Positions 31,513 through 39,630 of a stretch of DNA of 64,000 nt are shown here, in pieces. The stretch's first letter is position 1. Each line of letters begins with the position of its first letter. The translations under genes were made by a program, and so were the position numbers. The notes beneath the pieces are model-generated. The model was not told the DNA's origin. It saw only the letters and a program-made list of their open reading frames with translations, and did no database searches. Location of the stretch: contig CAIYSL010000119.1 in assembly GCA_903928915.1 (NCBI GenBank), positions 1-64,000 of the forward strand, written 5' to 3'. This stretch comes from an uncultured Syntrophobacterales bacterium. GTDB taxonomy: Bacteria > Desulfobacterota > Syntrophia > Syntrophales > UBA5619.

Positions 31513-32541
31513 ATGAAACGATCGATCCTTCTGTTTGTGCTCTTTGTGTTGTTGGGCAGCTTTTTCCCGCCGGTGGCGGGGGCCGCAAACAGCGGCGCCA
31601 TCACGCTTCTGTTCACCGGGGCGGTCAAGGGGATGCTCGACCCCTGCGACGCTTGAGCGGACAACAGCTCGGGCGGTCTGGCCCGGCGCGCGCAGGTGAT
31701 AGAATCGCTGCGGAAAAGCGAACCCGTGGTGCTGGTGGATTGCGGGGGACTGTTCGATGCCACCTCCCGGGACAAGGCTGAAGTGCTGCTGACCGCGATG
31801 GAGGCGATGGGGTACGACGCCCTGAACCTCGGCGGCCCGGAGTTCTTCTACGGCGCGGATTTTCTCGCCCATGCCCGCTCCCATGTCTCGTTCCCCTACA
31901 TCGCGTCGAACCTGAGCCCGGGGGGGAACCGGCTTGCCGGGGCCAGGCAGTACGTCATCAAACAGGCAGGCGGGCTCAGGGTCGCCATTCTCGGCGTGGT
32001 CCCCCCGGAAGAGGTCGACCTAATCCCCGGCCGGGAACGGATGGGCGGCCTGGCGGCTTTGCCCCCGGAGCCCGCGCTCAGCAAGCTGCTCACCGAGGTG
32101 CGGCCACAGGCCGATCTGGTCGTCCTGCTCTCCCGGTACGACGTGGAGAAGACCAGCGCGCTGGTGCAGTCCCTCACCGGGATCGACGTGGCCGTTTCCG
32201 CGGGCAGCGATGACGTCTTCTACGCAAAGCCGCTGGAGCACACCGTCCTGCTGCAGACCGGGTCCCAGGGAAGGACGCTGGGGCTGCTCAGGATCGCGCG
32301 CGACGGCACGGGCATCAGGGTAGTCGACCGGGGCCATATCCGGCTGGACCGCACCGTCCCCGACCATGCCGGGGTGGCGCGACTCGTCGACGGCTTCAAG
32401 AATGCCCAGCAGCTGCGCGCCGCCGAAGCCGCCGCGCAGCGCGACCGGGACTTGCGGCAAGGGCTGCGGTTGAGCCCCCAAGAGTTCATGGAGCAGTACC
32501 AGAAACAACAAGCGGAAACGAAAAAAGGAGAGGCACGGTGA
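31513..32541 (+). CDS. Probable UshA-like selenoprotein (UGA read as selenocysteine at codon 48)
   Basis: The frame from ATG 31513 (GGGAGGGG just upstream) to TAA-free end at 32541 is broken only by TGA at 31654-31656. Translating it as Sec gives 342 residues: signal peptide (about 1-25), LLFTGAVKGMLDPC, the motif C45-D-A-U48, then SSGGLARRAQVIESL. GGLARR after a PC motif is characteristic of UshA-like 5'-nucleotidase/metallophosphatase relatives, and this conserved stretch lies between the TGA and the next possible start (GTG 31696), so reading through is needed to keep the domain. A SECIS-like hairpin follows the TGA. Metal-ligand positions look eroded (VDCGGLF, LLSRYD, VSAGSDD), so a redox rather than hydrolase role is plausible. 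A pseudogene is the alternative. Confidence 0.8.
31654..31685 (+). promoter_or_regulatory. In-frame UGA and bacterial SECIS-like hairpin
   Basis: The UGA (31654-31656) is followed after 13 bases by a stem of five G-C pairs, CGGGC (31670-31674) with GCCCG (31681-31685). The apical loop is GGUCUG (31675-31680). The loop GGUC begins 18 bases after the UGA, inside the spacing accepted for bacterial SECIS elements, and matches the apical loop of E. coli fdhF. A SelB-Sec-tRNA complex would bind here. Confidence 0.75.
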
Positions 32542-32984
32542 AAACAAATCGACGGCTGCCCCTGGCAGCATGCTTGCTGATGGCGACCTTGGCGCTGGGC
32601 TGCGCGGCCCTGTCCCCGGTGGAGGAAACGCAGGCCCTGCACCAGCGGGTAGCGCAGTACATGCAGGCCCAGGTGGACGGGAAGTGGGAGCTCGCCTACT
32701 CCTATCTCGACCCCTCCTCGCGCGCTGAAATGACGCGGGAGAGTTACCTGAAGCGCCCGCGGAATATGCCCTACCGGGGGTTCGCGGTCGAAGAGGTCCG
32801 GATTCTTCCGGCGGGGGACCGCGCCACGGTCAAGGTGAAGATCGACGTCCGGTTCATGAGCTACGACTTCAAAGGGGCACCCCAGACGCAGGAGTGGGTC
32901 CGGGAAGAGGGGGAGTGGTTCGTGAAGGCGGCACAGCAGCAGGCGCCGCGGCATCCCTTCGGGTCCCCGCAACAGCAGAAATAG
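32538..32984 (+). CDS. Small outer-membrane or periplasmic lipoprotein, unknown function
   Basis: The GTG start overlaps the selenoprotein TGA (GTGA, 32538-32541), so the two are translated together. The 148-residue product has a lipoprotein signal peptide with lipobox LALGC (Cys near residue 22). The rest reads as a compact alpha+beta fold (VAQYMQAQVDGKWELAYSYL, VKIDVRFMSYDFKG, WVREEGEWFVKAA) that resembles NTF2-like/DUF4878-type domains; that is only an impression. It is probably a partner or anchor of the UshA-like selenoprotein. Confidence 0.85.
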   Translation: MKTNRRLPLAACLLMATLALGCAALSPVEETQALHQRVAQYMQAQVDGKWELAYSYLDPSSRAEMTRESYLKRPRNMPYRGFAVEEVRILPAGDRATVKVKIDVRFMSYDFKGAPQTQEWVREEGEWFVKAAQQQAPRHPFGSPQQQK

Positions 32985-32995
32985 GGCTCGGCGCG

Positions 32996-35479
32996 CTACA
33001 TGTTCGCCCCGCTCAGCAGCTGATTCCCGGCGTCGCCGTACAGATAGAAACCGCCGATGGCGCCGGTATCACCTTCGGTGCGGAACTTGAGAAACGAGAT
33101 CTCCGCCGCCGCCTGACCGAAACGGGCCCCCACTTCGAACACCTCATACGCCCCGGCCGCGAGGGTCACGGTCTGGACCTGACCCGCCAGCAGATTCCCG
33201 CTGCGGTCGTAGGGCTCGACCGTCACGGTCTGCGCCTGCGAAGCGGGGTTGCAGACCCCGACCCCCGTCCACCAATAGCCGTCATTGCCGGGGTAGTGGG
33301 GCAGGCTGAGGCTGCCCCGGTACCGGGTGTCGTCCAGGAGCGGAAAGCTCGCGTCGTCCAGCCCGCCGGTGGTGTAGGTATAATACCCGACCAGGGGGGA
33401 GCGGCCCGTAATCTCGAGGATCGAACGGTACAGGGGGTCCCCGGCCCCCTTTCCGAACCGCTCCTGGATATCCACGACCCGTTTTTCCCGCGGGGCCAGG
33501 ACGATGTTCAGGTCCCCGCCGGTGTCGGCGCCGGCCAGGGCGAGGTGGAACGTGACGGGGTTCTCCTGATCGTTCGGGTTGATCAGGGTCACCCGCGTAT
33601 TCCAGCTGCCCGGTTCGGGCACGTGGGGCACGATCTTCTTTCCCCCCCCCACCGGGAGGGCGAACAGGGTCTCCACGCCGGATGAATCGGCGGTGTACTG
33701 AAAACCGCTGAGGAGATGGCTGCCATCGCCGAGGATCTCGATCCAGCCGGCCTGCGGCATGGCGTAGAAGGGGGGGGAGCCGGACTCGATCGGGAGCCAC
33801 CCCCGGCCGGCGATCGACACGGCCGCCTCCGCAAGCAGGGAACCTCCCCCCGCATACAGGCGGAGGGTGACGCCGGACGCATCGAAGGACTCGTTGCGGA
33901 CCGCCCCGAACATCCGCAGGCCCGGGATCAGGGCCGGGGCCGTGTCCGGGATTACCAGCCGGGTCCCCCGGGCGTTGCCCTGGACAAAGGTGGAAAGGTA
34001 GCGGTTGTTCCCGCCGATCAGGTTGAGCATCTCCACCGGCCCGTCCGCTTCGAGGTTCAGCCTGCTGGTTTCGGACAGTTCATGACGGCGCACGCCCAGA
34101 GCATCGAACAGGAAGACCCGTTTCTCGCCCGGGTCGAGCCGGAGCGGTCCCAGGACCGTCTGGAGCGGAACGCCGTCCCGGGTCTGGGTCGTCAGCGTCA
34201 CCCGCTCCACCGCCGCGGCGCCCGTGTTGGTCAGGGCGAACCCGGACCAATCGCCGCTCTTGGGCAGGTACGGGACGACCTGGTCGTAGGACCGCTTCAC
34301 GTCCGTCCGGAGGAGATAGATGTTCGGGTCGGTGTAGTCGCTCTGGGTCAGCCTGAGGGTGTACGGCGGCGCCGCGGCGGTCAGACGCAGGTCCAGGGGC
34401 GCGCCGTTCGTCACGACCGCGCGGTGCACCTCCGTGCCGCTGCCGTCGGTGACGGCCGCCTCGATGTCCCGCTGGCTCCCCGGCTGCTTTTCCACCCGGA
34501 TGGACAGGATATCCCCGGCGGCGGAGTGGATCCGGTACAGGTCCTCGTCGAGGAGGATGAGGTTGTAGGTCCCCGGCCCGATGTCCACGACCGTACCGCC
34601 GTGTTCCAGGAAATCGTCCCGGGAGGCGGCGATCCTGCGCACCTCCTGGTAGTCGAGCCCGGGAAACCCGGTCCCCACCCCGAGCGAAATGCTCAGGAGC
34701 TCCGGGTGGTCGACGACGCTCGCCCCGGTCCATTGGCCGCCGACGATCGCCCCGCCCGCGCCCAGGAACAGGTCGTAGGTGTAGTGGTAGGGATGCACCA
34801 GGGTCCCCCGGTAGTCCGGCGCCACCGCGTCGTCGGCGAAATAGATGGTCACCTCCACGGATTCGACGCTGCCGCTGACCGAAGAGGTCATGTCGTACCG
34901 GTAGACCGGGTACGACCACACCTCTTCCCCGGTCCAGAGGTCGGCCACGAAGGGCTTGCCCTCGTCCTTGATGTACTTCAGCAGCCAGAGGTGGAACACA
35001 TCGGGCTCGATGCCGTTGCCGATCTCGCCGATGTCGTTGCTGTGGGCCAGGGTCAGGAGCCCCTTCTTGTCCCCGACGCGAAAGACGATGTTGTCCTCCG
35101 AGGAGGGGACAACGTCGATGTTCTCGGTGCTGGCGGCCCGGGCCCAGTGGGCGCAAAGCCCCCACCAGGCCGGCGCGTTCGGGTCGTAATGGGCCGCCAG
35201 GTACTGGGTGAGGGCCGTGCCCGTGGCCGTGCCGCCGGTGAGGAGGCTGTACTTCTCCAGCGGGGCCGGCCGGCCGCGGTAGTCCAGGCCGGTGCCGAGC
35301 CCCCCCTGCCAATCGGGCCACCAGTAGCCCGACCAGGGGCGGAAAGAGGCCTCGCGGGTCTCGGCCTTCGCGCCGGGGGGGCACAGCCCCGCAAGCAGGA
35401 AGAGCAAAACCAGGGCCCCGGCCAGGGCGGCCCGGCCCCGGGTTCTGCGCGTTCTGGGTTCGATCGATCGCATCGTCAT
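32996..35479 (-). CDS. Secreted transglutaminase-elicitor-like protein with beta-rich repeats
   Basis: This 827-residue protein has an N-terminal signal peptide (hydrophobic core about 19-33, Ala-x-Ala near 39). Residues about 45-300 resemble the transglutaminase elicitor family: WWGLCAHWARAA (105-116, candidate catalytic Cys109), then FHLWLLKYIKDEG and FVADLWTGEEVWSYPVYRYD with candidate His and Asp. The rest is repeated beta-sandwich-like modules (WSGFALTNTGAAAVERVTL; YWWTGVGVCNPASQAQTVTV). It could crosslink or cleave peptide material outside the cell; no function is proven. The start is 2 bp after the stop of the small exported protein gene, implying an operon. Likely T2SS cargo (inference). 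Confidence 0.75.
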   Translation of the reverse strand: MTMRSIEPRTRRTRGRAALAGALVLLFLLAGLCPPGAKAETREASFRPWSGYWWPDWQGGLGTGLDYRGRPAPLEKYSLLTGGTATGTALTQYLAAHYDPNAPAWWGLCAHWARAASTENIDVVPSSEDNIVFRVGDKKGLLTLAHSNDIGEIGNGIEPDVFHLWLLKYIKDEGKPFVADLWTGEEVWSYPVYRYDMTSSVSGSVESVEVTIYFADDAVAPDYRGTLVHPYHYTYDLFLGAGGAIVGGQWTGASVVDHPELLSISLGVGTGFPGLDYQEVRRIAASRDDFLEHGGTVVDIGPGTYNLILLDEDLYRIHSAAGDILSIRVEKQPGSQRDIEAAVTDGSGTEVHRAVVTNGAPLDLRLTAAAPPYTLRLTQSDYTDPNIYLLRTDVKRSYDQVVPYLPKSGDWSGFALTNTGAAAVERVTLTTQTRDGVPLQTVLGPLRLDPGEKRVFLFDALGVRRHELSETSRLNLEADGPVEMLNLIGGNNRYLSTFVQGNARGTRLVIPDTAPALIPGLRMFGAVRNESFDASGVTLRLYAGGGSLLAEAAVSIAGRGWLPIESGSPPFYAMPQAGWIEILGDGSHLLSGFQYTADSSGVETLFALPVGGGKKIVPHVPEPGSWNTRVTLINPNDQENPVTFHLALAGADTGGDLNIVLAPREKRVVDIQERFGKGAGDPLYRSILEITGRSPLVGYYTYTTGGLDDASFPLLDDTRYRGSLSLPHYPGNDGYWWTGVGVCNPASQAQTVTVEPYDRSGNLLAGQVQTVTLAAGAYEVFEVGARFGQAAAEISFLKFRTEGDTGAIGGFYLYGDAGNQLLSGANM

Positions 35480-35480
35480 A

Positions 35481-36152
35481 TCAGGGGATGAGCCACGAAC
35501 GCCGCACCGGCGTCTCTTCGAACAGCCACCAGGCGCCGTCGGCGCTCCACAGCTGCTTCACCATCGGCCGGCCCGCCTCGTCGGTGACGGAAACCATGAT
35601 CAAGAGCGCCCCGGCGGCAAGCTCGGTCCGGAGATAGCCCATCGCCCGGGCCTCGGCGACGGCCATCGCCGCGGCGCTCACGCGGTAGTTCCGGACGAAC
35701 ACCCTGCCTCCGGCCTCGACCGTCTCCGGGTATGTCGCGCCGCCCTCGGCCGTGACGGCCGGCAGGACATCGCAGGGGGCGGGAAACCCGGCCAGGAGCA
35801 GGAGCCCGGCGCCGCTTTTCTGCTGCCCCGGGCTGGCCCCGGTCCACTCGATCGCGCCGCTGCCGCCCGGGCCGGGAATCGAGATCTCGCACAGTGCGGC
35901 CGCCCCCGGCGCAGCCTCGGGGAAGAAGCGCAGGAGCGTTCTTCCGCTCGGACCGGACTCCGGCACAATCCGCCACACCTGGGTGTGGGGCCGGCCGGCG
36001 CTCTTGAAGGCCGAATACTCCGACTGGACGCTGAGCGCCGCCTCAGGATGGTACGGGGCGGCCGGGCACGGGCCGGCAAACGCCAGCAGCGCGAACCCCG
36101 CGAGGGCGACGGCGCCCCACCGGCAGATACCTCTGTTCCTGTCTACTCTCAC
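35481..36152 (-). CDS. Exported protein of unknown function
   Basis: I do not recognise this 223-residue protein. It has an N-terminal signal peptide (hydrophobic residues 13-28, AAPYHPEAAL after the cleavage site), no membrane segments afterwards, and a mixed alpha/beta composition with a late SAAAMAVAEARAMGYLRTEL helix. It lies directly upstream of the transglutaminase-like gene (2-bp gap) and may be its partner, inhibitor or chaperone. The closeness of the two genes is observed; the partnership is inference. Confidence 0.7.
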   Translation of the reverse strand: MRVDRNRGICRWGAVALAGFALLAFAGPCPAAPYHPEAALSVQSEYSAFKSAGRPHTQVWRIVPESGPSGRTLLRFFPEAAPGAAALCEISIPGPGGSGAIEWTGASPGQQKSGAGLLLLAGFPAPCDVLPAVTAEGGATYPETVEAGGRVFVRNYRVSAAAMAVAEARAMGYLRTELAAGALLIMVSVTDEAGRPMVKQLWSADGAWWLFEETPVRRSWLIP

Positions 36153-36209
36153 CTGCCTGTCCTTCGTCGATCGCCGCCCGGTCCGGTCCGGCCCCGGGGA
36201 GGCGCGGTC

Positions 36210-36243
36210 AAAAAAATCGGGGGACCTTTTTCAAGGCCCCCCG
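36210..36243 (-). terminator. Rho-independent terminator downstream of the surface protein gene
   Basis: Read on the minus strand there is a stem of five plus four pairs with one mismatch (36219-36228 with 36233-36242), a 4-base loop, and then GA followed by seven T (36216-36210). It lies about 95 bp after the stop codon at 36335. Confidence 0.8.
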
Positions 36244-36282
36244 CCGATGATCAGCCGAGGCACCCCCCGGCCTCAGGTTGGG

Positions 36283-36322
36283 AACCGGTGCGCCCCCGCC
36301 CGGAGGAGGCGGCGCACCGGTT
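36283..36322 (-). repeat. 12-bp perfect inverted repeat after the surface protein gene
   Basis: AACCGGTGCGCC (36283-36294) pairs perfectly with GGCGCACCGGTT (36311-36322) around a 16-base loop, 12 bases after the stop codon at 36335. There is no T-tract behind it. It could stabilise the 3' end of the mRNA or slow polymerase before the terminator at 36210-36243. Confidence 0.65.
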
Positions 36323-36334
36323 CGGCTTGTTTAG

Positions 36335-38065
36335 TTAGGGCTTGCAGAGGTAGCCCATGGAGTTGTGCGTACCATCGGCCATCATGACAAACCCGTACAC
36401 CGAGCCTGCCGGGACGGTCGCTGCGCCCGACGCTACCGCCGTGATGTAGGCGGGAACGCCGACCGGCGCGGTGCCGGTCCACGTGAAGGCGGACACCAGC
36501 TTCGCGACGGTGCCCTTTGCCGCGACCGTCTCGGTCGCCGTTGCCGTGGTGCCGTCACCCTTGTAGGCCGTGATGGCGAAGGTCACCGGCTGCGACATCG
36601 TGTTGGTCAGGGCAAGCCCGTTCCACCAGGAGTCTGCAGGCGCGATGCTCGTGACGTAGGGACAGGTGATGGTGGTGCTCCCCGCCGTCACCGGGCAGGT
36701 AGCAACGAAGGTGCCCATGCACAGGTCGAGGGTTACCACGTTGCCGCAGGTCTGCTTCGCCAGGGTCACGCGGACCGTAACGACTGAACCAGCGGCCACC
36801 TCGGCCAGGTTGTAGTTGAACGCGGGCAGGTTGAGCTCGAAGAACATGTCGCCGGCCGCGAACAGGGCGCCGGCCGTGGTGACGAACTTCACTGCCTTGG
36901 CGGCTGCCGCGACGCCGGCGCACGCGCCTGCGATCGGGGCGACCGGGACGGCGGGCGTGGTGCCGTCGCCGCGGTAGTAGGTCTGACCGGCGAACCCGAC
37001 GGCGCCCACTGCGGTACCGCAGGTGGTGCTCGACGAGGTCTTGTACGCCGGGGCCACGTTGCTCCAGTAGACGCCGCGCTCGCCCGCCACGCCGTTGACC
37101 AGGATCTCGGCGGTCACGGTGTAGGGAACGAGTTCAAACTGCTGCGAGGACTGGATGACGAACTTGGGCAGGTAGCCCGTATACGCGGTGTGGTCGGAGC
37201 AGTAGCCGTTGGCGCCCGTGCCGAGCGTCTCATAGTCGAAGGCCACGCAGGTCGCTGCAGCCTGGGTGGTGGAGCCCAGCGGGATGCTGCCGCAGGTGGC
37301 GCCCTTGCAGGTCACCAGCGCGTAGGTCTGGGGGGCCATGATGTGGGCGATCGTGTAGTCGCCGGAGAAGTTCAGCTTGTCGGCGACCAGTTCCGGAACC
37401 GAGTTCGGGGTGTTCTGCACGTACTCACCCTGGTAGTCCTGGGTCAGAGTGTCGATGCAGAGCGCGTTGTCCTGGGCCACGATGGCCGTGTCGTACGCGG
37501 TGGTGGTCGTATTCCACTTCTGGATACCGGAGGTGGCGAAGGTGCCCACGCCCTTGCCGTCGAACAGCTTCACGACGAACTTGTCGGTCAGCGCGGTGCC
37601 CGTGAAGGTCATCCGCAGGTTGGTGTCGGCCGCGAGCACGCCCGTAGCCGTGATCACCTGCCGCAGGGTCAGCCGGATGATCTGGCTGCCCACGGCGCCC
37701 TGGACCACGAAGCCCCACTGCTGGCCACCCGCCGCCGCGGTGATGGTGCCCGCCGTTGTCGAAGCGGGAAGGGCGCCGGTCAGGTCGAGGGTGCCCGCCG
37801 TGTTGGCGAAGGTCACGAACCAATTGATGTCCTTGCAGACCGTTACCTTGTTGTTGAGCGTGAACTCGATGTAGTCGCCTTCCCGCATGGACGACAGGGA
37901 GTCAAATTCCATGGTGTCCGTACCGGCCTGGTAGCAGGTCGATTTCGGGATGTTGGGCACGGTGGTCTTCAGGAAGACCTGGTTCGCGGCAAAGGCCATG
38001 GCCGAAAACGACAGGACCATGAATACCGCGGCTAAAATGGTAAAAATACCTTTTCTTCTCATCAT
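36335..38065 (-). CDS. Cysteine-containing secreted surface protein, unknown family
   Basis: This 576-residue protein has a clear signal peptide (MMRRKGIFTILAAVFMVLSF, Ala-x-Ala at about 24-26). It is rich in Thr, Ala, Val and Gly with about fifteen cysteines, many in short pairs (CKGATCGS, TCPVTAGSTTITCPY). The C-terminal module DSWWNGLALTNTMSQPVTF resembles modules in the secreted protein at 32996-35479. A strong ribosome site (AAGGAGG, 38071-38077), its own upstream gap and a tight terminator suggest high expression, as for a surface-layer or adhesive structural protein. Disulfides would fit the VKOR gene in the window. Function unknown. Confidence 0.75.
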   Translation of the reverse strand: MMRRKGIFTILAAVFMVLSFSAMAFAANQVFLKTTVPNIPKSTCYQAGTDTMEFDSLSSMREGDYIEFTLNNKVTVCKDINWFVTFANTAGTLDLTGALPASTTAGTITAAAGGQQWGFVVQGAVGSQIIRLTLRQVITATGVLAADTNLRMTFTGTALTDKFVVKLFDGKGVGTFATSGIQKWNTTTTAYDTAIVAQDNALCIDTLTQDYQGEYVQNTPNSVPELVADKLNFSGDYTIAHIMAPQTYALVTCKGATCGSIPLGSTTQAAATCVAFDYETLGTGANGYCSDHTAYTGYLPKFVIQSSQQFELVPYTVTAEILVNGVAGERGVYWSNVAPAYKTSSSTTCGTAVGAVGFAGQTYYRGDGTTPAVPVAPIAGACAGVAAAAKAVKFVTTAGALFAAGDMFFELNLPAFNYNLAEVAAGSVVTVRVTLAKQTCGNVVTLDLCMGTFVATCPVTAGSTTITCPYVTSIAPADSWWNGLALTNTMSQPVTFAITAYKGDGTTATATETVAAKGTVAKLVSAFTWTGTAPVGVPAYITAVASGAATVPAGSVYGFVMMADGTHNSMGYLCKP

Positions 38066-38295
38066 TCCTTCCTCCTTGAGTGTTGTCAGTGTAACCGTAC
38101 GTAAAACGCAAACACCTTGTACCGTAAAAAGAATTCCTGCCTAGTCTGCGCCCTCTCACCCCCCTCCTTACGGAACCTTTTCCTGATTTCGATCCGACTG
38201 CTGTTCGAATCCCTTCATCCGCTTTTTTTCGTAAGGCATACTGCCTGTATCGTACAGCCACGTAACAAGGAACGGCGGCAAAGTCAAGCGAAAAC

Positions 38296-39465
38296 CTACG
38301 GCCCTGCTGGCTCGGCCGGGGCCGGCGCGGCCACGTCGCACACGGCCAGGTACACGTTCCATTCCGCCGTCTCGCTCCGCAGCACCCCCTTCTCGAAGCC
38401 GATCCCCGCGACCTTCATCCGGGGTTCGAGGAACGTCAGGCTCGCGGCGTTCGACGGATCTAGCTCGGCGCGGAGCATCCCCTCGAACAGGCGGCCCACC
38501 GCTACCGGCGGATCGATGGGGTCGGTAAACCAGGTGATCCCCAGCGACTCTCCCGCGATCTCGAACCCGTAGCCGCTCTGGGCGATCCGGTCGGCAGAGG
38601 TGCGGCCGTCCAGGCCGGTCTTTCCGTAGTAGTTGTTCCGCAGCATGTCCCGGACGTGCGCCTGGGCGGAGTACAGCAGGGAGCCCTGCGCCGCCAGAGG
38701 CGCTAGCCCCGCTTCGAAGGCCGGCCGCAGGTCGGGACGTGCATCGAGCAGGGCTGCGGTGGGGATCCCCAGGGATTCCGCGATTGCCAGGGGGTTGGCC
38801 CGGGCCGCGTTGATCAGCCCGAGCAGCTCCTGCTCCGGTCCCGTCAGGACGGTCCCGAAATCGCAGGTGGCCACGTAGACGTTCCAGAGGAGCCCTCCCA
38901 GCCGGAGCCCTCCCGTGTCTACGCTGACCCCGGCCTCCTTCAGGCGGGGGTCGAGGATGTTCCGTTTCTCCGTGCGCGAGGGGTCCAGTTCATCCCAGTA
39001 CATGTACTCGAACAGGAACCGGGCCGCGTCCCCGGGGTCGATGAAATTGGCGAAGGCCAGCATGCCCAGGGACTCTCCGCTGGCCACGGCAGGGTACCCC
39101 GCATCACGGATGCGCGCTTCGTATCCCCGGCCGTCCGGGGAGACGTGGGAGTAGTAATCGTTGGCCAGCATGTCCGCGGTGTGGCTGCGGGCCGCGCCGT
39201 ACAGGGTCCCGTTGAACGACACGGGCGGGATACCCTCCTTCAGGATCTTCTCCAGCCCGGGGAGGTCGGCCAGGACCTTTGCGGGGTCCATGCCCATCGC
39301 CGCGGCCATGGCAAGCGGGTTCTGGCGCGCCTGGTTGATCAGCGCCAGCAGGGCCTCTTCCTGCGGCGACGGGACCGCGTCGGCCGCGAAGGCTGCAGAA
39401 GCCCCTCCCGTCAGGAGGGCGATCGCGAGGAGCAGCAGGCTGAGGAGTTTCTTCGTCGTTATCAT
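38296..39465 (-). CDS. Secreted protein with two tandem CAP (SCP/PR-1) domains
   Basis: This 389-residue protein starts at ATG 39465 with a signal peptide (LLSLLLLAIALLTGG, Ala-x-Ala near 27). It has two CAP domains. The first (about 35-205) has AARSHTADMLANDYYSHVSP and SGESLGML, with both His and the Glu of the usual cavity. The second (about 210-375) keeps AQAHVRDMLRNNYY and AGESLGI but has Lys where the second His belongs (YYGKTGLDG). CAP proteins bind lipids or cleave peptides in various systems; here the role is open. The upstream region holds a terminator-like hairpin and paired palindromes, and a separate transcript is likely. Confidence 0.83.
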   Translation of the reverse strand: MITTKKLLSLLLLAIALLTGGASAAFAADAVPSPQEEALLALINQARQNPLAMAAAMGMDPAKVLADLPGLEKILKEGIPPVSFNGTLYGAARSHTADMLANDYYSHVSPDGRGYEARIRDAGYPAVASGESLGMLAFANFIDPGDAARFLFEYMYWDELDPSRTEKRNILDPRLKEAGVSVDTGGLRLGGLLWNVYVATCDFGTVLTGPEQELLGLINAARANPLAIAESLGIPTAALLDARPDLRPAFEAGLAPLAAQGSLLYSAQAHVRDMLRNNYYGKTGLDGRTSADRIAQSGYGFEIAGESLGITWFTDPIDPPVAVGRLFEGMLRAELDPSNAASLTFLEPRMKVAGIGFEKGVLRSETAEWNVYLAVCDVAAPAPAEPAGP

Positions 39466-39494
39466 AGCGCCTTCGTTACATGCAACAACCGTGC

Positions 39495-39527
39495 AAAAAA
39501 CTTCGGCGGGCCATTTTTTGCCCGCCG
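39495..39527 (-). terminator. Terminator-like hairpin in front of the CAP gene
   Basis: On the minus strand CGGCGGGC (39527-39520) pairs with GCCCGCCG (39511-39504), eight perfect pairs, followed by AAG and six T (39500-39495). It can end the transcript arriving from the receptor gene (stop at 39689). Because it lies only 30 bp before the CAP start, it could also act as an attenuator if that gene's promoter lies upstream of it. Confidence 0.7.
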
Positions 39528-39630
39528 CGATCACACCTCATTAGTAACATACTGATATTATTTGATCTATCAGCATCGCGGCGCAGTGGTCACCCTGGCG
39601 CGCCGAAGGGAGGGGGAATTTTACTTCGGC

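What the first reader, a model, noticed from the sequence alone, without database searches (positions are those of the whole stretch)
31513..32541. Secreted UshA-like protein with UGA-encoded selenocysteine in a CxxU motif
The frame upstream and downstream of TGA 31654 is the same. The stretch between the TGA and the next start codon encodes GGLARRA, which is a conserved family motif and would be lost if translation restarted. The codon lies in Cys45-Asp-Ala-X48, a redox-type CxxU layout, in a signal-peptide protein whose usual metal-ligand positions look replaced. Together this suggests a periplasmic selenium-dependent redox protein derived from a metallophosphatase fold. I have an unverified memory that Sec-containing UshA-like families have been noted, so family novelty is uncertain.
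Basis: partly seen in the sequence, partly recalled or inferred. Interest (0 to 1): 0.92.

Follow-up and report, generated by a model that had tools for sequence, protein, structure and literature searches.

The report
Secreted selenium protein from dead phosphatase
This gene really does encode a secreted selenocysteine protein built on a 5'-nucleotidase fold that has lost its metal site; related selenoproteins are known, but this one belongs to an unnamed branch with its own partner genes.

Summary
One frame runs from 31513 to 32538 across an in-frame TGA at codon 48. In the nearest clade that codon is TGA in 12 genes and Cys in 2. The genome has selA, selB, selC and selD. A hairpin with a GGUCU-type loop follows the TGA in 51 related genes, with compensatory stem changes. 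Selenocysteine and the lost metal site (0 of 8 ligands; 8 of 8 in 17 true UshA relatives) are well supported. A redox role is supported indirectly: relatives are fused to a tetraheme cytochrome, sit beside a VKOR/thioredoxin-like protein, or follow CcdA and a secreted thioredoxin. UshA-like selenoproteins are already catalogued (NF041198, NF049981). This protein fails both cut-offs and its clade is separate: no heme domain, a sub-branch without the partner Cys, and a lipoprotein partner confined to the same nine genomes. It is a new variant of a known kind. Its substrate is unknown.

The parts
31513..32538 (+). Coding sequence of the UshA-like selenoprotein (342 residues; stop TGA 32539-32541)
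   Evidence: Translation with TGA as U; homologues align end to end
31513..31587 (+). Probable Sec-dependent export signal peptide (residues 1-25)
   Evidence: Hydrophobic stretch ending in AGA-A, read by eye; similar in relatives
31645..31647 (+). Cys45 of the CxxU motif
   Evidence: TGC codon; conserved in the CxxU sub-branch, lost in another
31654..31656 (+). Sec48 codon, TGA
   Evidence: TGA or Cys at this column in relatives
31669..31686 (+). Predicted bacterial SECIS hairpin, stem UCGGGC/GCCCGG, loop GGUCUG
   Evidence: Comparative hairpin scan and pairing test in 51 genes; alone not significant
31741..31743 (+). Cys77 in DCGG at old metal motif II; possible alternative partner of Sec48
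   Evidence: Only Cys45 and Cys77 besides Sec48 in the protein; role inferred
32538..32984 (+). Partner lipoprotein, GTG start inside the stop codon of the selenoprotein gene
   Evidence: Same pair after 11 genes of the clade; lipobox-like LGC
32996..35479 (-). Secreted transglutaminase-like protein; convergent neighbour, link inferred
   Evidence: PF16683 TGase_elicitor 7.3e-12; GLC motif in most relatives examined
35481..36152 (-). Secreted protein of the same cluster, no family
   Evidence: No Pfam match; similar-sized genes in related clusters
36335..38065 (-). Secreted protein of the same cluster, no family
   Evidence: No Pfam match; similar genes in related clusters
38296..39534 (-). 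CAP-domain secreted protein of the same cluster
   Evidence: PF00188 6.2e-15

Best explanation
The gene encodes a secreted selenoprotein. UGA 31654 is read as selenocysteine by SelB with tRNA-Sec, directed by the hairpin just after it (machinery, conserved TGA and SECIS shown; insertion itself inferred). The protein keeps the N-terminal metallophosphatase-type domain of 5'-nucleotidases but has lost every metal ligand, so it is not a metal-dependent nucleotidase (shown by sequence). Sec48, in the loop just after old motif I, most likely replaces the metal centre as the reactive group. With Cys45, and possibly Cys77, it probably cycles between selenol/thiol and selenenylsulfide and passes electrons to or from a partner outside the cytoplasm (inferred). 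In this clade the immediate partner is probably the coupled lipoprotein at 32538-32984 (inferred from linkage). The client may lie in the neighbouring secreted TGase-like/CAP cluster (speculative).
For: All four sel genes in the genome. TGA at the same codon in 12 clade genes and Cys in 2. SECIS hairpin in 51 genes, 5.33 of 6 pairs against 4.73 shuffled, GGTCT loop absent from 13 true UshA controls. Constraint on both sides of the TGA. Fold match to solved 5'-nucleotidases 1.7e-39. 0 of 8 metal ligands against 8 of 8 in 17 UshA relatives. Redox links of the domain in relatives: four CxxCH in 27 of 30 PCGU proteins, VKOR/Thioredoxin_4 neighbours, CcdA and a secreted thioredoxin upstream of the CxxC paralogue. 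Lipoprotein confined to the nine of 155 genomes with this clade.
Against: No protein data. The redox links are in sister branches, not at the window locus, where the neighbours are not known redox carriers. The upstream Cys is absent in a sub-branch, so a simple CxxU couple cannot hold for all. In two genomes the lipoprotein is not beside the selenoprotein gene. The SECIS test is confounded by the conserved GGLA codons and by relatedness. No usable structure model.
Confidence: 0.78

Rival explanations
1. Sec48 and Cys45 bind or transform a metalloid or soft metal, or carry sulfur as a persulfide (a SoxB-like role without metals), rather than exchange electrons with proteins.
For: The CxxC paralogue G016b lies in an operon with an SBF-family (ACR3-like) efflux protein and a cation efflux protein. 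SoxB models match weakly (2.5e-13).
Against: That operon also holds CcdA and thioredoxin-like proteins, which fits a redox role as well. No such genes lie beside the window gene. SoxB-type metal ligands are absent. Lone-Sec members lack the second ligand.
Confidence: 0.12
2. The TGA is a true stop: the gene is broken or the product restarts at GTG 31696 as a cytoplasmic or non-secreted protein.
For: Standard gene calling gives only the 31696-32541 ORF.
Against: TGA is conserved at one codon across diverged genomes and swapped only for Cys in the clade; the part before it is under constraint; SECIS and all sel genes are present; a restart would lose the export signal.
Confidence: 0.02
3. Sec48 and Cys45 form a mainly structural selenenylsulfide that stabilises the loop, like the loop disulfide of animal 5'-nucleotidases; the protein is a binding pseudoenzyme with no redox turnover.
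For: In the profile alignment the Sec column falls on a Cys of the venom 5'-nucleotidase loop.
Against: A structural bridge rarely warrants selenium; the upstream Cys is lost in a sub-branch while Sec stays.
Confidence: 0.05

Closest known systems
NCBIfam NF041198, UshA_like_PCGU (UshA-like CxU selenoprotein of the GOS survey, PMC2398784)
   Same: Same domain, Sec in the same loop, similar SECIS hairpin, degenerate metal site
   Different: CxU not CxxU; typically about 520 residues with four C-terminal CxxCH motifs (27 of 30); window protein scores 138.6 against a cut-off of 275 and falls outside its rows in the tree
NCBIfam NF049981, UshA-like (seleno)protein family 2 (listed in PMC13188914)
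   Same: CxxU motif, no heme domain, UshA-like N-terminal domain
   Different: Window protein scores 56.7 against 140; separate, supported clade (97/99) in the tree; different neighbours
Unnamed PCPTU clade beside VKOR/thioredoxin-like genes
   Same: CxxU, short form, SECIS, same order
   Different: Separate clade at 100/100; VKOR/Thioredoxin_4-type neighbour instead of the lipoprotein
UshA / CD73-type 5'-nucleotidases and SoxB
   Same: Fold of the N-terminal domain by profile match (1.7e-39 to solved 5'-nucleotidases)
   Different: 0 of 8 metal ligands, no nucleotidase C-terminal domain found, Sec in the active-site loop

Membership tests
Bacterial selenoprotein (general) | Sec machinery selA, selB, selC, selD in the genome | tested here: met
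Bacterial selenoprotein (general) | In-frame TGA aligned with TGA or Cys in homologues | tested here: met
Bacterial selenoprotein (general) | SECIS hairpin just after the TGA | tested here: met
   Comparative evidence, 51 genes; not significant in the window alone
Bacterial selenoprotein (general) | Sec detected in the protein | not testable with these tools
   Needs mass spectrometry
NF041198 UshA_like_PCGU | Score above the curated cut-off of 275 | tested here: not met
   138.6 bits; no genome of the order passes
NF041198 UshA_like_PCGU | CxU (PCGU) motif | tested here: not met
   PCDAU, CxxU
NF041198 UshA_like_PCGU | C-terminal tetraheme domain (seen here in 27 of 30; not stated by the family description) | tested here: not met
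   Only Cys45 and Cys77 in the window protein
NF049981 UshA_like_Sel_2 | Score above the curated cut-off of 140 | tested here: not met
   56.7 bits; no genome of the order passes
NF049981 UshA_like_Sel_2 | CxxU motif | tested here: met
NF049981 UshA_like_Sel_2 | Groups with family members in a tree | tested here: not met
   Separate clades
UshA-type 5'-nucleotidase (as an enzyme) | Dimetal ligands DxH, GD, NH, H, HxH | tested here: not met
   0 of 8 kept
UshA-type 5'-nucleotidase (as an enzyme) | N-terminal metallophosphatase-type domain | tested here: met
   Profile matches to NCBIfam and PDB; Pfam itself gives no match

The most novel reading that the evidence does not exclude
A metallophosphatase domain was converted into a selenol-based redox domain used in several extracytoplasmic electron routes (tetraheme-fused, VKOR-linked, CcdA-linked). 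In this clade it works with a dedicated lipoprotein to keep or switch the redox state of a secreted transglutaminase-like/CAP system.
Probability: 0.15. Interest if true: 0.75.

Novelty: new variant of a known kind. Interest (0 to 1): 0.5.

Why it matters
It adds an unannotated selenoprotein clade that a mechanical ORF call cuts short and that both existing NCBIfam models miss at their cut-offs. It also gives a testable idea of what UshA-like selenoproteins do: the domain has lost the phosphatase site, kept one Sec, and recurs fused to, next to or in an operon with three different extracytoplasmic redox carriers.

Tried and rejected
The genome-contig scan gave only one ordinary UshA relative. 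Rfam has no relevant match in this stretch. Promoter and terminator scans were empty. Laying out the whole genome was not available. A single-sequence fold of the SECIS was uninformative and was replaced by the comparative test. Sequencing error, pseudogene and restart were considered and rejected on the relatives. SoxB-like metal-dependent hydrolysis was rejected on the missing ligands. The paper on selenoprotein neighbourhoods (10.1128/msystems.01417-24), which may describe some of these families, is not held.

Full report
Observation. The frame 31513-32538 is open except for TGA 31654-31656, codon 48; Cys45 is three codons before it, and the stop is TGA 32539-32541. A mechanical caller gives only the ORF from GTG 31696.

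Is the TGA read as selenocysteine? The genome has tRNA-Sec (75 bits, over cut-off; anticodon TCA), SelB, SelA on the same contig as the window and SelD, which itself carries a TGA. In one related genome (G016) a 52% identical gene has TGA at the same codon and a 54% identical paralogue has TGC, giving PCPSU and PCIAC against PCDAU in the window. In the wider clade TGA occurs in 12 genes and Cys in 2, and the column is one of 11 invariant columns among 16 sequences. Substitutions are constrained before and after the codon.

SECIS. After the TGA, 51 Sec genes of several clades share a hairpin whose apical loop usually holds GGUCU, which from my own knowledge is also the loop motif of the E. coli fdhF SECIS. 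Its stem varies by compensatory changes (G-C, U-A and C-G at one pair), with 5.33 of 6 pairs formed against 4.73 (sd 0.08, maximum 5.04) when arms are shuffled among genes. None of 13 true UshA controls has the GGTCT loop, and both Cys relatives retain it. Two caveats: the arms are partly fixed by the GGLA codons and the genes are related, so the shuffle is not a strict probability; and the window hairpin alone is unremarkable (z 0.24; about 19% of random window positions do as well).

What fold, and is it an enzyme? Pfam is silent, but NCBIfam UshA-type models and solved 5'-nucleotidases (1.7e-39 with the family profile) match about residues 28-305. The eight metal-ligand positions are A, K, G, G, P, R, G and D in the window protein, so none is kept, while 17 UshA relatives of the same order keep all eight. 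Hydrolysis by the usual dimetal centre is therefore very unlikely.

What does it do? The best clues come from relatives. Proteins of the known PCGU family carry four CxxCH motifs in 27 of 30 cases, with Cytochrome_C554 matching the C-terminus of the one scanned. PCPTU-clade genes are followed by a membrane protein with a Thioredoxin_4 match in all three scanned and a VKOR match in two of them, one above and one below Pfam's cut-off. The CxxC paralogue in G016 lies directly after a CcdA-type protein (DsbD_TM) and a secreted thioredoxin-like protein, in an apparent operon with an SBF-family (ACR3-like) efflux protein and an apparent UPFC glutaredoxin-like selenoprotein (the thioredoxin, glutaredoxin and ArsC-like readings are by eye). 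Different electron carriers beside one domain make an extracytoplasmic thiol/selenol redox role the best explanation.

Partners of the window clade. The usual partner is a lipoprotein starting inside the stop codon. It follows 11 genes of the clade, and strong matches occur in exactly the nine of 155 genomes that have the clade. A TGase-like protein, a CAP protein and further secreted proteins lie alongside in several of these genomes. In two genomes a lipoprotein copy occurs without the selenoprotein next to it, once within the same kind of cluster. That this cluster is the client is a guess.

An unexpected feature. One sub-branch (G129b/c, G123, G143a/b, G115b/c, G131c) has PxxGU or similar, so the CxxU Cys is gone while Sec stays; most have a Cys in DCG or SQC at old motif II or IV positions. 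Sec, not the Cys pair, is the constant element, and the resolving partner may have moved.

Comparison with the known. UshA-like selenoproteins were reported in 2008 (CxU, PMC2398784), and two NCBIfam models exist (NF041198 CxU, NF049981 CxxU; PMC13188914). The window protein scores 138.6 against 275 and 56.7 against 140, and no genome of this order reaches either cut-off. In a maximum-likelihood tree its clade of 12 is supported at 100/100 and lies apart from the PCPTU clade, the NF049981 group and true UshA; the PCGU rows do not form one clade and the deep order is not well resolved. Hence: a new variant of a known kind.

Noticed in passing
L119-L148 (NF041198-type genes): 27 of 30 of these UshA-like proteins carry four CxxCH motifs (tetraheme C-terminus); I found no mention of it in the papers held.
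   Followed up: partly
L087:8200-8800, minus strand: An apparent glutaredoxin-like selenoprotein (TDTUPFCNQA, read by eye) in an arsenic-type operon of G016 that also holds the CxxC UshA-like paralogue.
   Followed up: no
L135 (G263): A tetraheme UshA-like protein in which both Cys and Sec of PCGU are replaced (PSGR), so the motif can be lost altogether.
   Followed up: no
L164:12019-13215: A second UshA-like protein with PCPTC (Cys for Sec) directly downstream of the Sec gene G143a.
   Followed up: no
window 32996-39534: A cluster of secreted proteins (TGase_elicitor, CAP, two without family) that recurs in several related genomes; looks like an undescribed secreted or surface system.
   Followed up: partly
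L208:3382-6310 and L207:4749-5195: The lipoprotein family occurs without a selenoprotein beside it; in L208 it follows the TGase-like gene.
   Followed up: partly
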